The notes under the pieces were generated by a model. That model searched no databases, had not been told where the DNA came from, and saw only the letters and a program-made list of their open reading frames with translations. Shown one piece after another: positions 24,537 through 28,840 of a stretch of 64,000 nucleotides of DNA. Both the position numbers and the translations under genes were made by a program. This stretch comes from Burkholderiaceae bacterium (GTDB lineage Bacteria; Pseudomonadota; Gammaproteobacteria; Burkholderiales; Burkholderiaceae_E). The stretch's first letter is position 1. Every line of letters starts with the position of its first letter. The stretch spans positions 59,315 to 123,314 of the forward strand of contig JAMLIR010000014.1 of NCBI GenBank assembly GCA_023954045.1. Reading direction: 5' to 3'.

Positions 24537-25175
24537 ATGGCCGATGCCGAACATTCAGGGATGCGGGACCGGGAAGCCGCGGTAGCGATTCGCCTGCTCG
24601 TCAGCAGCGGCCAGTCGCCGTTGCGCATCGTTCCGGTCGCAAAGGAGTGCCTGACCATCGGTCGGCGCCCGTACAATGACATACCCCTGGACGACCTGAC
24701 CGTCAGCGGCGAGCACGCGCTGGTGCGCACGCGGGGCACCGAGAGCGTGGTCCACGACCTCGACAGTCGCAACGGCACGCTGGTCAACGGGATGGCCGTC
24801 AAGCAACGGGTACTCTGCGACGGAGACGTGATCGACATCGGCATCTACCGGCTGCGCTACGTGCTCGACCGGACGACGCTCGCCGAGACGCAGCCGCCCG
24901 AGGCCCGTCAGCCGACGGCGTTCGTCGACTTCCTGAGCGGACCGCTGGCGGGCACCTCGCAGCGCATCGACCGGTCGATCACGCGCCTGGGCGGCCACGC
25001 CGAGCAGGTGGCGGTGATCTCGCGCCGCAAGGGCCGCTTCCACATCACCCACCTCGAGGGCCTGGCCTTTCCGCAGGTCAACGGGGAGCAGATCGGCCTG
25101 ACCGCGCGGCCGGTCGTGGACGGCGACCTGATCGAGCTAGCGGGCGTGATGATGCGTTTCCGGCTCGGCGGTTGA
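24537..25175 (+). CDS. Protein with two FHA domains (second degenerate)
   Basis: 212 residues, no membrane segment. The first forkhead-associated domain (about 20-95) is complete: TIGRRPYNDIPLDDLTVSGEHA and DLDSRNGTLVNGMAV carry the phosphothreonine-binding Arg, Ser-x-x-His and Asn. The second (about 125-210) keeps the fold outline ([19 protein letters not shown] and PQVNGEQIG) but lacks the Ser-x-x-His pattern. FHA domains bind phosphothreonine peptides, yet no Ser/Thr kinase is in the window. It sits 24 bases before the cyclase gene, so the protein probably belongs to the same signalling unit. Confidence 0.9.
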   Translation: MADAEHSGMRDREAAVAIRLLVSSGQSPLRIVPVAKECLTIGRRPYNDIPLDDLTVSGEHALVRTRGTESVVHDLDSRNGTLVNGMAVKQRVLCDGDVIDIGIYRLRYVLDRTTLAETQPPEARQPTAFVDFLSGPLAGTSQRIDRSITRLGGHAEQVAVISRRKGRFHITHLEGLAFPQVNGEQIGLTARPVVDGDLIELAGVMMRFRLGG

Positions 25176-25199
25176 GCCGCCGGGCGGGACGGGCCATCG

Positions 25200-27215
25200 A
25201 TGTCCCCGCTGCAGAAATCCCGGTTCTGGCGGGCGATCGCCGGTCTTGCGGTCGTCGTCGCGTTCGCCGCAGCCGATCTCGGCGCGTTTCGCGCCCCGGC
25301 CCTGTCCGCGCTGGACCGCGAACTCTACGATGGCCGCCAGCGCCTCGCGGCGCCGGCGCTCGACGAGCGCATCGTCGTCGTCGACATCGACGAACGCAGC
25401 CTGGCCGAGCAGGGCCGCTGGCCCTGGGATCGCGGCAGGATCGCCGCACTGGCCGAGGCGCTCGTCGACCGGGGCGGCGCGGCGGTGGTCGGCTTCGACG
25501 TCGTCTTCGCCGAACGCCAGGCGGGCACGGAAGACGATGCGCGGTTGGCGCGGGCGCTCGCCGGGCGCCCGGTCGTGCTGGGCTACTACTTCAGCAGCGA
25601 CCGCGAGGGCCGCACCAGCGGCGCGCTGCCGGCGCCGCTCTACCAGGGCGACGCGGCGCGCGAACTGGCGCCGCGCATCACGCACGCGAACGGCTTCGGC
25701 GCGAACCTCGGCGAGTTGCAGCGTGCCGCGCGCGGGTCCGGGTTCTTCAATCCGTTCCTCGGCGGCGGCCTCGATCCCGACGGCGTGATCCGGGCGCTTC
25801 CGCTGCTCGCCGGCTATCGAGGGGCGGTCTACGAGTCGCTGGCGGTCGCCGTCCTGCGCGAGTACCTCGGCAACGCGTCGCTGGCGGTCCGGGGCGACCT
25901 GCTCGCGCTCGACGGCGCGCGCGGGCGCGTCGAACTGCCGGTCTCGGCGGGGTTCACGGCGATGGTGCCGCTGGCCGGGCGTGGCGGCCCCGCCGGCGGG
26001 CACTTCCGCTACCTGTCCGCCACCGACGTGCTCGAGGGCCGCGTCGACTGGAACCTGCTTCGCGGCCGGATCGTGCTGGTCGGCACGACCGCGCCGGGAC
26101 AGACCGACCTGCGGGCGACGCCGGTCAGCGAGGTATTCCCGGGCGTCGAGATCCACGCGTCGCTGATCTCCGGCGCGCTCGACGGACGGCTGAAGCAGCG
26201 ACCCGTCGAGGCGCCGGCGATCGCCGCGCTCGCGACGCTGGTGGTCGCCGGGCTGCTCGCGCTCGTGCTGCCCACGCTGGGCGCGGTCGGCGCGGTGCTC
26301 GCCAGCGTGGCTGCGGCGGCGACGCTCGCGGGCGCGAACGCGATCGCCTACTCGAGCCTCGGCCAGGTCGTGCCGCTCGCGTCCTCGCTCGCCGCAGTGC
26401 TGGTGCTTGGCCTGTTCAACCTGACGGCGGGATGGTTCGCCGAGGGGCGCGCGCGCCGCGCGATGGTGGAGCTGTTCGGCGAGTACGTGTCGCCGGACCT
26501 GGTCGAGCAGATGGCCCGCGATCCGTTCAGCTACCGCAATGCGCAAAGCACCAACCGCGAACTGACGATCCTGTTCGCCGACATCCGCGGCTTCACGCGG
26601 ATCGCCGAGACGATGGAACCCGAGGCGCTGCGCGAATACATCAACGCATTTCTGACCGGGATGACCGGCATCATCCACGCGCACCGCGGGACGGTCGACA
26701 AGTACATGGGCGACGCCGTGATGGCGTTCTGGGGCGCGCCGGTCGAGGATCCGGCTCACGCCGACCACGCGGTCTCGGCGGCGCTCGCGATGCAGGCCGA
26801 AGTGCGCCGGATGTCCGAGACCTTGCGCGCGCGCGGCCTGCCGCCGCTCGCGGTGGGAATCGGCATCAACACCGGCGTGGTGCGCGTCGGCGACATGGGT
26901 TCGAAACTGCGGCGCGCCTATACGGTCATCGGCGACGCGGTCAACCTCGCGTCGCGCCTCGAGGGCTTGACCAAGCACTACGAGGTTCCGATCATCGTGG
27001 GCGAGGCGACGGTCAGGCGCTGTCGCCGGCATGCATTCTTCGAGCTCGCCCGTGCCAGCGTCGCGGGCCGCGCCGAGCCGGTCGGGGCGTTCGTGCCGAC
27101 GGCCGCGCCCGGAACCGCCGGAGAGGGCATTGCAACGCGCCCGATGACCGCGCAGGACCAGACGCCGAGGAACGCCAGGGAAGCCTTGCATGAAGGTACG
27201 AGTCCTGGGGTGTAG
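25200..27215 (+). CDS. Adenylate cyclase with CHASE2 sensor domain
   Basis: 671 residues. Order: N-terminal membrane helix (about 10-28), extracytoplasmic CHASE2 domain (about 38-330), three membrane helices (about 338-414), and a class III cyclase domain (about 450-625). The metal-binding aspartates are in ILFADIRGFT and DKYMGDAVMAFW. The residue pair that selects the base is Lys (DKYMGD) and Thr (YTVIGDAVN), which favours ATP over GTP. The transition-state Asn and Arg are in GDAVNLASRLE. It probably makes cAMP in response to an envelope signal. Its last 26 bases overlap the phosphodiesterase start, so maker and breaker are coupled. Confidence 0.93.
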   Translation: MSPLQKSRFWRAIAGLAVVVAFAAADLGAFRAPALSALDRELYDGRQRLAAPALDERIVVVDIDERSLAEQGRWPWDRGRIAALAEALVDRGGAAVVGFDVVFAERQAGTEDDARLARALAGRPVVLGYYFSSDREGRTSGALPAPLYQGDAARELAPRITHANGFGANLGELQRAARGSGFFNPFLGGGLDPDGVIRALPLLAGYRGAVYESLAVAVLREYLGNASLAVRGDLLALDGARGRVELPVSAGFTAMVPLAGRGGPAGGHFRYLSATDVLEGRVDWNLLRGRIVLVGTTAPGQTDLRATPVSEVFPGVEIHASLISGALDGRLKQRPVEAPAIAALATLVVAGLLALVLPTLGAVGAVLASVAAAATLAGANAIAYSSLGQVVPLASSLAAVLVLGLFNLTAGWFAEGRARRAMVELFGEYVSPDLVEQMARDPFSYRNAQSTNRELTILFADIRGFTRIAETMEPEALREYINAFLTGMTGIIHAHRGTVDKYMGDAVMAFWGAPVEDPAHADHAVSAALAMQAEVRRMSETLRARGLPPLAVGIGINTGVVRVGDMGSKLRRAYTVIGDAVNLASRLEGLTKHYEVPIIVGEATVRRCRRHAFFELARASVAGRAEPVGAFVPTAAPGTAGEGIATRPMTAQDQTPRNAREALHEGTSPGV

Positions 27216-27954
27216 CGGGGGCATCGGCGCGCGCGCCCGGACGACATCGTTTCTCGTCGACCACGACGTGCTGCTCGATGCGGGCACCGGCGTCGAGGAC
27301 CTGTCGGTCGACGAGCTCGCCGCGATCGACCACGTCTTCCTCACTCACTCGCACCTGGACCACATCGCCGCGCTGCCGCTGCTGGTCGACTCGGTCGGAT
27401 CGCTGCGCGACAAGCCGATCGTCGTGCACGCGCTGCCCGAGACGATCGCGGCGCTGAAGACCCATGTCTTCAACTGGGTCATCTGGCCGGATTTCACCGA
27501 GATCCCGCACTACGAGCGGCCGTGGATGGTGTTCGAGCCGCTGTCGATCGGCAGCGTGGTCGAGGTGGGCGGCCGCTGGGTGCGCAGCCTGGCTGCGAGC
27601 CACACGGTGCCCGCGCTCGCGTTTCATGCGTACACCGAGGAGGCAGGGCTGGTCTTCTCGGGCGACACCGGGCCGAACGACGAGTTCTGGCGCCAGGTCA
27701 ACGGCGTGCCGAACCTGAAGTACCTGATCATCGAGACCGCGTTCTCGAACCGGGAGCAGGACCTCGCGGTCACCGCGAAGCACCTGTTCCCGATCCAGCT
27801 GAGCCAGGAGCTGGCCAAGCTGCAGCGCGAGCCGCAGATCCTGATCACGCACCTCAAGCCGTCGGACCGCGAGACGATCACGCGCGAGATCGAGGCCTGG
27901 GCGGGGCGCTTCGCGCCGCGGGTGCTCGAGCGCGGGGACGTGCTGGAGTTGTAG
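27190..27954 (+). CDS. 3',5'-cyclic-nucleotide phosphodiesterase, metallo-beta-lactamase fold (class II)
   Basis: 254 residues. The core metal motif [16 protein letters not shown] (near residue 53) closely matches the class II cyclic-nucleotide phosphodiesterase pattern H-x-H-L-D-H followed by a hydrophobic run and Ser. Later metal ligands are in [18 protein letters not shown] and LITHLKPSD. It probably hydrolyses cAMP. The ATG lies inside the end of the cyclase gene (26-base overlap in another frame), so translation of both should be linked. Other MBL-fold hydrolases cannot be wholly excluded. Confidence 0.88.
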
Positions 27955-28298: not shown

Positions 28299-28314
28299 TG
28301 GCACGATGCCTGCG
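28299..28314 (+). promoter_or_regulatory. Sigma-54 promoter of the pilin gene
   Basis: TGGCACGATGCCTGCG fits the sigma-54 consensus TGGCACG-N4-TTGCW, with GG and GC exactly ten bases apart. Transcription should begin near 28325, about 50 bases before the ATG. Type IV pilin genes in Pseudomonas and relatives use sigma-54 with PilR; no pilSR genes are in this window. Confidence 0.8.
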
Positions 28315-28376
28315 ACTGGATACGCGAGTCGACGTGGTCGACCGACTTCCCCAATGACCTATCCGGAGCTGAACAA

Positions 28377-28799
28377 ATGAAGATCCGCAAACAACTTCAG
28401 CAGGGTTTCACCCTGATCGAACTGATGATCGTCGTGGCGATCGTCGGGATCCTGGCTGCCGTGGCGCTTCCGGCATATCAGGACTACACGGTCCGGGCGC
28501 GGGTGACCGAGGGCCTTGGCCTTGCGAGCGGAGCCAAGTCGACCGTCGCCGAAAACGTCGCGAATGGCGCGGCCGATTTTTGCGCCGGCGTGACGGCGGT
28601 CGCCGCTGCCGATGGGCTGAAGAACGTGAAGACTCTCGCCTGCAACGCCGGGGTCATCACGGTCACGATGAACGCGAACGCGAAGGATGTCGTCCTCGCG
28701 CTGACCCCGACGACCGACGCGTCGAAACCGATCCAGTGGACCTGCGCGGTTTCCGCGGCGACCAACAACAAGTACGTTCCGAGCGAATGCCGCGTCTGA
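28377..28799 (+). CDS. pilA: Type IV pilin major subunit (PilA-like)
   Basis: 140 residues. A short basic leader [10 protein letters not shown] ends at the prepilin peptidase site, so mature protein starts at [20 protein letters not shown] with the essential Glu at +5. Two C-terminal cysteines (WTCAV and SECRV) can form the disulphide loop; another pair (DFCAG and LACNA) lies upstream. It is preceded by GGAG and a sigma-54 promoter and followed by a strong terminator, so it is a single-gene transcript as expected for the main pilin. The chemosensory genes that control such pili lie 1.3 kb downstream. Confidence 0.95.
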
Positions 28800-28840
28800 T
28801 GACCGATTGACCGGCACCCTGGGTGTCGGCCCGAAAGCAG

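What the first reader, a model, noticed from the sequence alone, without database searches (positions are those of the whole stretch)
24537..28800. FHA protein, CHASE2 adenylate cyclase and overlapping phosphodiesterase next to a cAMP-type site and pilin
Seen: the cyclase has Lys/Thr at the base-selecting positions, which favour ATP; a class II phosphodiesterase overlaps its end by 26 bases; an FHA protein precedes it. A GTGA-N6-TCAC palindrome and a sigma-54 promoter lie between them and a pilin gene, with the full pilus chemosensory set close by. Known: in Pseudomonas the Pil-Chp system raises cAMP through CyaB (MASE2, not CHASE2), and Vfr acts on pilus genes. Inference: a compact cAMP switch for type IV pili built from different parts, with an FHA input.
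Basis: partly seen in the sequence, partly recalled or inferred. Interest (0 to 1): 0.72.

Follow-up and report, generated by a model that had tools for sequence, protein, structure and literature searches.

The report
Pilus locus with built-in cAMP switch
A bacterium keeps genes that probably make, tune and destroy the messenger cAMP directly beside the genes for its gripping hairs (type IV pili), and relatives show that this is the trimmed remainder of a larger, apparently undescribed, pilus-control cluster.

Summary
An FHA protein, a CHASE2 class III cyclase and a class II phosphodiesterase-like enzyme precede a pilin gene, with pilGHIJ-chpA next door. The cyclase is the only class I or III cyclase found in the assembly. 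Of 59 cyclase loci examined from the order, 40 carry the trio; 35 of those 40 have a pilin or pilus-type ATPase downstream, against 2 of 17 cyclase loci lacking FHA.

The trio is the core of a larger cluster: CHASE2 Ser/Thr kinase, PP2C phosphatase, FHA, CHASE2 cyclase, phosphodiesterase, sometimes a cNMP-binding protein, GAF-PilB-like ATPase, GAF-HD-GYP, pilins. The first five keep their order in 44 of 47 loci. The window's clade lacks the kinase and GAF-ATPase (0 of 38 scored), often the phosphatase, and in 4 of 43 loci FHA too.

In that clade the sigma-54 pilin promoter carries a CRP-type palindrome (25 of 36 loci, against 1 of 28 others).

Best reading: a membrane-sensed cAMP switch for type IV pili acting through CRP on pilA. 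It works like Pseudomonas Pil-Chp-CyaB-Vfr but differs in cyclase sensor and phosphodiesterase class. Nothing was measured. Nine answered literature searches listed no paper on it. New variant of a known kind.

The parts
24537..25175 (+). FHA protein, 212 aa; canonical FHA domain (residues 40-102) followed by a second FHA-like half without the phosphothreonine-binding residues
   Evidence: Pfam PF00498; GR..SxxH..NG kept in 95 of 98 rows, the other 3 gapped; N-half against C-half by hhalign 96.6% probability, E 6e-10; AlphaFold model with strands 17-111 and 127-211, mean pLDDT 81.7, pTM 0.49
25200..27215 (+). CHASE2 class III adenylate cyclase, 671 aa: CHASE2 residues 27-351, catalytic domain 452-609
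   Evidence: Pfam; PDB relatives 6fht and CyaB 3r5g, about 3e-31; catalytic residues kept in 111-114 of 115 rows
27190..27954 (+). class II cyclic-nucleotide phosphodiesterase-like MBL enzyme, 254 aa; starts 26 bases before the cyclase ends
   Evidence: PF02112 51.8 bits over the cut-off 23.7; profile's best PDB match yeast PDE1 4ojv 4.9e-11; seven metal-site residues kept in 115 of 115 rows
28231..28244 (.). CRP-type palindrome GTGACGAATATCAC, centred about 87 bases before the start inferred for pilA transcription
   Evidence: perfect form upstream of the pilin in 25 of 36 window-clade loci (L114 reassigned by hand)
28264..28275 (.). second recurrent promoter element, CCATTCGTCGGC (clade form CCGTTCGTCGGC), factor unknown
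28299..28314 (+). sigma-54 type -24/-12 element TGGCACGATGCCTGCG
   Evidence: recurs at a near-fixed distance from the palindrome
28377..28799 (+). type IV pilin, 140 aa
   Evidence: PF00114, PF07963
30132..30557 (+). PilG-like response regulator
   Evidence: PF00072; the name rests on gene order
30554..30964 (+). PilH-like response regulator
   Evidence: PF00072; the name rests on gene order
30967..31485 (+). PilI-like CheW protein
   Evidence: PF01584
31507..33870 (+). PilJ chemoreceptor
   Evidence: PF13675 and PF00015
33886..39663 (+). ChpA/PilL-like hybrid kinase with four Hpt stretches, 1925 aa
   Evidence: PF01627 four stretches, PF02518, PF01584, PF00072
22578..24317 (+). two TerC-family membrane proteins that separate sucCD from the trio; recurrent flank
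   Evidence: PF03741; order

Best explanation
The locus is a cAMP switch dedicated to, or at least centred on, type IV pili. A CHASE2 domain, expected outside the membrane, senses an unknown signal and controls a class III adenylate cyclase, the only class I or III cyclase found in this genome. The translationally coupled class II phosphodiesterase removes the cAMP. cAMP loads a CRP-family protein that binds the palindrome near -87 of the sigma-54 pilA promoter and sets how much pilin is made, next to sigma-54 activator control and the adjoining Pil-Chp genes. The FHA protein, encoded just upstream, probably binds the cyclase or a phosphorylated partner through an intact phosphothreonine-binding domain and tunes it; in relatives its partners would be the adjacent CHASE2 Ser/Thr kinase and PP2C phosphatase, and a few close relatives do without it. 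Shown here: gene content, domain and catalytic-residue integrity, linkage to pilus genes, the larger cluster in relatives, absence of its kinase from the window's clade, and the promoter footprint. Inferred: enzyme activities, the sensed signal, the FHA partner, the identity of the CRP and the sign of its effect on pilA, and any contact with PilG.
For: Domains and catalytic residues. One class III and no class I cyclase in the 4.02 Mb, 97% complete assembly. Pilus linkage 35 of 40 trio loci against 2 of 17 cyclase loci without a found FHA gene, Fisher p 7.5e-8, relatedness not corrected. Order KIN-PP2C-FHA-CYC-PDE on one strand in 44 of 47 loci having kinase and PDE. Of 30 kinase-bearing loci, 11, 8 and 6 lie behind three different upstream gene sets (5 other or contig edge). 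Perfect palindrome upstream of the pilin in 25 of 36 window-clade loci against 1 of 28 others; 24 sites in 34 upstream stretches of 420 bases against 22 in the remaining 694 kb of the clade's loci, about 50 times denser. Start-to-start distance to the sigma-54 element 67-69 bases in 17 of the 21 loci lined up (distances). Where pilA lies about 6 kb from the PDE (L039, L132) the site stays with pilA. Palindromes of 7-8 of 8 persist where FHA is gone (L127, L131, L133). A CRP-like protein with the best of 10 cNMP-binding scores is encoded elsewhere.
Against: No activity, binding or phenotype was measured. The locus kinase is absent from the window's clade (0 of 38 scored loci), and FHA itself is absent from 4 of 43 (L127, L131, L133, L143), so an FHA input there needs another kinase (two are encoded elsewhere in this genome), is dispensable, or is a relic. 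Outside the window's clade the pilin upstream stretches lack the perfect palindrome (1 of 28 has it), so a cAMP output there must be different. 11 of 36 window-clade stretches lack the perfect form (4 of these have 7 of 8). All palindrome evidence lies in one clade. The alignment was anchored on the best match, so conservation of the arms there is partly by construction. As apparently the sole cyclase, the enzyme may serve more than pili. Four loci (L165, L166, L168, L175) have FHA and PDE adjacent with no cyclase between. The 59 loci were taken mostly from the top of a score list. The CRP-like protein scores 153 bits against NCBI's CRP cut-off of 266.
Confidence: 0.57

Rival explanations
1. 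The trio is the cell's general cAMP module. It sits by the pilus genes through inherited gene order, and pilA is just one of many CRP targets; there is no dedicated pilus switch.
For: It carries the only class I/III cyclase found in the assembly. The flank sucCD-terC recurs together with it in many loci. The YGTGA-N6-TCACR pattern has 15 places in the genome, though 12 of the 15 lie inside predicted frames.
Against: The block keeps its order behind at least three different upstream gene sets, and pilus genes follow 35 of 40 trio loci but 2 of 17 cyclase loci without a found FHA gene. A housekeeping module would not be expected to carry a GAF-PilB-like ATPase and pilins.
Confidence: 0.27
2. cAMP and the FHA/phosphorylation branch are separate. 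In this clade the FHA protein is a relic or serves another partner, for example an OdhI-like brake on metabolism beside sucCD, and the cyclase works without it.
For: Kinase absent from 38 of 38 and PP2C from 25 of 38 scored window-clade loci; FHA itself absent from 4 of 43 while cyclase, PDE and pilin stay; the FHA protein's best NCBIfam matches are OdhI and FhaB, far below their cut-offs (60 of 200 and 56 of 125 bits); FHA-PDE pairs without a cyclase exist.
Against: Where FHA is present its phosphothreonine-binding residues are kept in every row that covers them, 95 of 98; FHA stays directly before the cyclase also where sucCD is not the flank and in 39 of 43 window-clade loci (window included).
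Confidence: 0.25
3. The cyclase or the MBL enzyme has another substrate, so the locus does not control cAMP.
For: Substrate was never measured; the PDEase_II match covers only 62 residues of the protein, and RNase Z models also match below their cut-offs.
Against: Lys and Thr at the base-selecting positions in 112 of 115 rows each, as in CyaB (alignment); the profile's best solved relative is yeast 3',5'-cyclic-nucleotide phosphodiesterase 1 with the shared HVFN-x2-IWPD stretch; a CRP-type site stands at the pilin promoter.
Confidence: 0.08

Closest known systems
Pseudomonas aeruginosa Pil-Chp / CyaB / CpdA / Vfr (PMC12533971, passages read)
   Same: Pil-Chp genes, a class III adenylate cyclase, a phosphodiesterase and a CRP-family regulator expected to act on pilus genes; FimV also encoded in the genome
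   Different: Cyclase with CHASE2 instead of MASE2 (MASE2 is from the finding and recall); class II MBL phosphodiesterase instead of CpdA (CpdA's family recalled); FHA protein and, in relatives, kinase and phosphatase; cyclase gene inside the pilus locus; CRP-type site at pilA itself, whereas the paper's Vfr reporter was the pilMNOPQ promoter
Sinorhizobium meliloti CyaD1/CyaD2/CyaK - Clr (PMC5498481, passages read)
   Same: Receptor-like cyclase whose CHASE2 part restrains it (the pCyaD1-deltaCHASE2 plasmid makes cAMP constitutively) acting through a CRP-family regulator
   Different: Symbiosis control, different DNA site (TGTT-N8-AACA), no FHA-cyclase-PDE-pilin arrangement in the passages read
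Azoarcus sp. BH72 pilAB promoter (PMC3262810, passages read)
   Same: Pilin promoter of the sigma-54 type, mapped by primer extension, with PilSR control
   Different: No adenylate cyclase mentioned (0 occurrences of 'adenylate'); no cAMP site in the passages read
Yeast 3',5'-cyclic-nucleotide phosphodiesterase 1 (PDB 4ojv)
   Same: Best solved relative of the phosphodiesterase profile
   Different: Eukaryotic, longer (369 aa), E only 4.9e-11
OdhI / FhaB FHA proteins
   Same: Canonical FHA domain
   Different: Scores far below the family cut-offs; tandem FHA-like halves; no conserved linker threonine stood out in the alignment

Membership tests
Pil-Chp-CyaB-Vfr pilus cAMP pathway | Pil-Chp gene set (pilGHIJ, chpA) in the genome | tested here: met
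   window 30132-39663; G and H named by order
Pil-Chp-CyaB-Vfr pilus cAMP pathway | CyaB-type cyclase with MASE2 domain | tested here: not met
   N-terminal domain is CHASE2; it is the only class III cyclase found
Pil-Chp-CyaB-Vfr pilus cAMP pathway | CRP/Vfr regulator encoded | tested here: inconclusive
   L092 protein resembles CRP and Vfr (about 1e-30) but is below NCBI's CRP cut-off
Pil-Chp-CyaB-Vfr pilus cAMP pathway | cAMP rises through Pil-Chp/PilG | not testable with these tools
   needs mutants and cAMP assays
Class III adenylate cyclase | two metal Asp, Lys and Thr/Asp for adenine, Asn and Arg for transition state | tested here: met
   all six in the window protein; 111-114 of 115 rows; the residue roles are recalled
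Class II cyclic-nucleotide phosphodiesterase | PF02112 over cut-off and HxHxDH metal site | tested here: met
   51.8 against 23.7 bits; HxHxDH in 115 of 115 rows; only 62 residues of the protein matched
Class II cyclic-nucleotide phosphodiesterase | hydrolysis of cAMP | not testable with these tools
   needs enzyme assay
FHA phosphothreonine reader | GR, SxxH, NG residues | tested here: met
   95 of 98 rows, remaining 3 gapped
sigma-54 dependent pilA promoter | GG and GC at -24/-12 with right spacing, placed before pilA | tested here: met
   9 of 11 consensus positions in the window; 9 or more in 61 of 64 non-duplicate pilin upstream stretches; transcription start not mapped
CRP/cAMP operator | GTGA-N6-TCAC recurring at a promoter | tested here: met
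   25 of 36 window-clade loci against 1 of 28 others; binding not tested

The most novel reading that the evidence does not exclude
Burkholderiales carry an undescribed pilus-control cluster in which three signalling currencies meet: Ser/Thr phosphorylation (CHASE2 kinase, PP2C, FHA), cAMP (CHASE2 cyclase, class II phosphodiesterase, cNMP-binding-rhodanese protein) and probably c-di-GMP (GAF-HD-GYP), acting on a dedicated GAF-PilB-type pilus motor and its pilins. In the Lautropia-like family of the window the kinase and the dedicated motor were lost, and control was rewired to transcription by placing a CRP operator at the sigma-54 pilA promoter.
Probability: 0.38. Interest if true: 0.8.

Novelty: new variant of a known kind. 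Interest (0 to 1): 0.66.

Why it matters
cAMP control of type IV pili is worked out mainly in Pseudomonas, where cyclase, phosphodiesterase and regulator genes lie apart from the pilus genes (recalled). Here many genomes of one order seem to have solved the same task with a compact kit of other parts next to the pilins. The larger form adds a eukaryotic-type kinase, a phosphatase and an FHA reader, which would make a direct route from protein phosphorylation to cAMP testable. The graded loss of parts in one family, together with a CRP-type site at pilA, offers a natural series for studying how a signalling circuit is rewired. Named relatives found here (Zeimonas arvi, Quisquiliibacterium transsilvanicum for the short form; Sulfurisoma sediminicola for the long form) are potential test organisms.

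Tried and rejected
Window-only statistics for the palindrome and the sigma-54 element did not beat chance, so comparison across loci was used. A first classification of loci used distances too tight for stop-to-stop frames and put true trios under 'partial'; it was replaced. The kinase count (47 of 84) was contaminated by CHASE2 cyclases that match the kinase profile; one search recounted kinase-labelled proteins only (47 of 47 with HRD and DFG motifs). The sucD query was out of frame, so its sucD column is not used; sucD adjacency rests on cluster 10. A TGTGA version of the site found only one place in the genome; the YGTGA form found 15 against 1 for the backward control, 12 of them inside predicted frames, so I claim no genome-wide regulon. 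An OdhI-like role for the FHA protein was considered and set low. In one search the loci scored outside the window clade were admitted partly because they have the kinase, so the 49 of 50 there is biased and not used as a rate. For that reason I raised the rival of a separate FHA branch from 0.20 to 0.25 and lowered the main reading from 0.58 to 0.57. One search was for the Pseudomonas pathway; the other nine listed no paper on this locus, judged from listings and abstract starts. Long result lists were shown only in part (20 of 31; 15 of 71). Three papers were opened, passages only. Subscription journals are mostly not held.

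
Full report
What is there. Cyclase and phosphodiesterase overlap by 26 bases. The cyclase has every catalytic residue of class III enzymes (roles recalled), with Lys and Thr at the base-selecting positions; across 115 rows that have both genes (10 duplicates of the same genomes dropped) each of the six is kept in 111-114 rows, the misses being mostly gaps. Its nearest solved relatives are a bacteriophytochrome-adenylate cyclase fusion and CyaB. The phosphodiesterase passes the PDEase_II cut-off, although only 62 of its residues are matched; its profile's best solved relative is yeast 3',5'-cyclic-nucleotide phosphodiesterase 1, and seven metal-site residues are kept in 115 of 115 rows. 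Two TerC genes lie upstream, thiE and the pilGHIJ-chpA set downstream.

The genome. The window lies in a 4.02 Mb assembly, 97% complete. The searches found one class III cyclase and no class I cyclase (other cyclase classes were not searched), one CHASE2 domain, two Ser/Thr kinase domains and one PP2C_2 domain elsewhere (one kinase and the PP2C lie side by side), FimV, seven T2SSE domains of which the one scanned, PilB-like by its neighbours, has MshEN and no GAF domain, and ten cNMP-binding domains. The best of these ten is a 226-residue CRP-like protein. Relatives by phosphodiesterase identity are Lautropia-like Burkholderiales metagenome assemblies (up to 98%), Quisquiliibacterium transsilvanicum (82%) and Zeimonas arvi (81%).

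The larger cluster. A search of 300 genomes of the order found the cyclase at E 1e-20 or better in 185. I took 60 stretches around matches, mostly from the top of the printed list, and classified 59 of 6.6-19.5 kb (the 60th, L006, is a 3.5 kb contig). 40 of 59 hold FHA, cyclase and phosphodiesterase in this order; 7 hold cyclase and phosphodiesterase only, 2 FHA and cyclase only, 10 neither. In 35 of the 40 a pilin or a GAF-PilB-type ATPase follows on the same strand, against 2 of the 17 loci in which no FHA gene was found (Fisher p 7.5e-8, not corrected for relatedness). One of those 2 (L079) has its contig end at the cyclase, so its FHA state is unknown. Of the five trio exceptions, L035 has 1.2 kb of contig left, L057 has 4 kb without a pilus gene, and L036-L038 carry a gene of one cluster downstream that is the TfpZ pilin accessory protein in L036 and L037 (L038 was not scanned).

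Clustering of neighbours and Pfam on one representative each gave the rest of the cluster: a CHASE2 Ser/Thr kinase of about 849 residues, a PP2C phosphatase, then FHA, cyclase, phosphodiesterase, in some a cNMP-binding-rhodanese protein, then a GAF-MshEN-T2SSE ATPase (a GAF-bearing PilB type), a GAF-HD protein and pilins. Over unnamed and named loci together (duplicates dropped), 44 of 47 loci with kinase and phosphodiesterase show the order KIN-PP2C-FHA-CYC-PDE on one strand; 47 of 47 kinases of 600 residues or more have HRD and DFG motifs; 50 of 50 HD proteins have the HD-GYP signature (these motifs recalled). Among 30 kinase-bearing loci of the order sample, 11 lie behind sucCD or terC, 8 and 6 behind two other recurrent gene sets, 5 behind something else or a contig edge, so the cohesion is not only inherited synteny.

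The window's form is a reduction. On a tree of concatenated cyclase and phosphodiesterase (107 rows, 1027 columns, FastTree, midpoint root) the window falls in a clade of 46 tips. Of 38 tips of that clade with the flank visible, none has the kinase or the GAF-ATPase and 13 have PP2C, with at least 4 changes of PP2C state inside the clade. FHA is beside the cyclase in 39 of 43 tips with upstream sequence, the window included, and missing from L127, L131, L133 and L143 (L006, L123 and L136 have too little upstream sequence). So the part that stays in every tip of this tree, by the way the tips were chosen, is cyclase and phosphodiesterase. Where present, FHA has intact phosphothreonine-binding residues. 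The FHA protein is a tandem: its second half aligns with the first at 96.6% probability, E 6e-10 (hhalign of two profiles), but lacks the binding residues. The AlphaFold model shows two beta-rich parts, 17-111 and 127-211, mean pLDDT 81.7, pTM 0.49, so their relative placement is uncertain. No fold comparison is reported.

The promoter. Upstream of the pilin, window-clade loci share three elements: the palindrome GTGA-N6-TCAC, a CCGTTCGTCGGC element, and a sigma-54 type TGGCAC-N5-CTGC. The palindrome is perfect in 25 of 36 window-clade loci and in 1 of 28 others. One search printed 24 of 35 and 2 of 29; I moved L114, a 94% phosphodiesterase relative that the tree had left out, and six fragmentary close relatives had been put with the clade by hand in the script. 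In the clade's loci 24 sites lie in 34 upstream stretches of 420 bases and 22 in the remaining 694 kb (7 of these 22 in or just before a pilin frame), a density about 50 times lower. Twenty-one of 24 loci were lined up on their best site (7 or 8 of 8); the arms are conserved there partly because sites were picked by them, but the start-to-start distance to the sigma-54 element, which played no part in the picking, is 67-69 bases in 17 of the 21, while the core bases vary. In a neighbouring group (L135, L137, L139, L140, L144, L145; four of the six show PP2C) the palindrome is perfect but begins 16 bases before the element. In L039 and L132, where pilA lies about 6 kb from the phosphodiesterase, the site stays with pilA. 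In the window the centre is about 87 bases before the transcription start expected from the -12 element (my arithmetic). In the whole genome the 16-base form occurs at 15 places against 1 for the backward pattern, 12 of them inside predicted frames. The sigma-54 type element scores 9 or more of 11 in 61 of 64 non-duplicate pilin upstream stretches, inside and outside the clade.

Beyond the order. A search of 369 genomes of the class found the phosphodiesterase at E 1e-30 or better in 132. I read 40 stretches; two (L236, L237) belong to the order. Of the other 38, 24 show the phosphodiesterase without any of the other parts, 13 have an FHA gene on the opposite strand, four of these with PP2C and kinase behind it (L204, L213, L221, L235; L204 also has the cyclase), and one (L232) has GAF-ATPase, HD-GYP and cyclase nearby. 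So the tie of phosphodiesterase to kinase-PP2C-FHA may be older than the tie to pili; this is a lead, not a test.

How it probably works. CHASE2 sensing controls the cyclase: in S. meliloti a CyaD1 lacking CHASE2 makes cAMP constitutively (PMC5498481, passages). The phosphodiesterase clears cAMP. The FHA protein reads a phosphothreonine, in the long form one set by the adjacent kinase and removed by PP2C. In the window's clade cAMP most likely acts through a CRP-family protein at pilA, upstream of a sigma-54 promoter of the kind mapped for pilAB in Azoarcus (PMC3262810, passages). In P. aeruginosa Pil-Chp stimulates CyaB, and Vfr then raises pilus genes, with CpdA as phosphodiesterase (PMC12533971, passages). 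The present locus works like that pathway but is not a member of it: the cyclase's sensor domain and the phosphodiesterase class differ. Whether PilG or FimV touches this cyclase is unknown. The sign of the CRP effect cannot be read from sequence; a site at -87 of a sigma-54 promoter may help or hinder the enhancer-binding activator.

Limits. Nothing was measured. The sample is score-ranked and contains metagenome assemblies. The palindrome result is one clade. Absence of a kinase from the locus is not absence from the genome; only the window's own assembly was searched whole for kinases. In print: the answered searches listed no paper on this cluster, but two lists were shown in part and subscription journals are mostly not held.

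Noticed in passing
window 28264-28275: A second recurrent element, CCGTTCGTCGGC in the clade, lies between the palindrome and the sigma-54 element of pilA and is found also where the palindrome has moved; possibly the activator (PilR) site.
   Followed up: partly
L165, L166, L168, L175 (records titled Rhodocyclaceae, Betaproteobacteria, Uliginosibacterium, Dechloromonas agitata): PP2C-FHA-phosphodiesterase with no cyclase or kinase found, still followed by HD-GYP, GAF-ATPase or pilins: what would the phosphodiesterase do there?
   Followed up: partly
L127, L131, L133, L143: Close relatives that keep cyclase, phosphodiesterase and pilin but have lost the FHA gene.
   Followed up: partly
L204, L213, L221, L235: Outside the order, kinase-PP2C-FHA stands on the opposite strand beside the phosphodiesterase, suggesting an older phosphorylation-phosphodiesterase pair without pilus genes.
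   Followed up: no
L073 6416-7501 and other long loci: A cNMP-binding domain fused to a rhodanese domain sits between phosphodiesterase and GAF-ATPase; a candidate local cAMP receptor.
   Followed up: no
L256 1501-1516 (own genome C47:115806): A palindrome CGTGATGAATATCACG, one base off the pilA site; its neighbouring genes were not identified.
   Followed up: no
window 22578-23276 and 23610-24317: Two tandem TerC-family paralogues between sucCD and the trio; most relatives show one.
   Followed up: no
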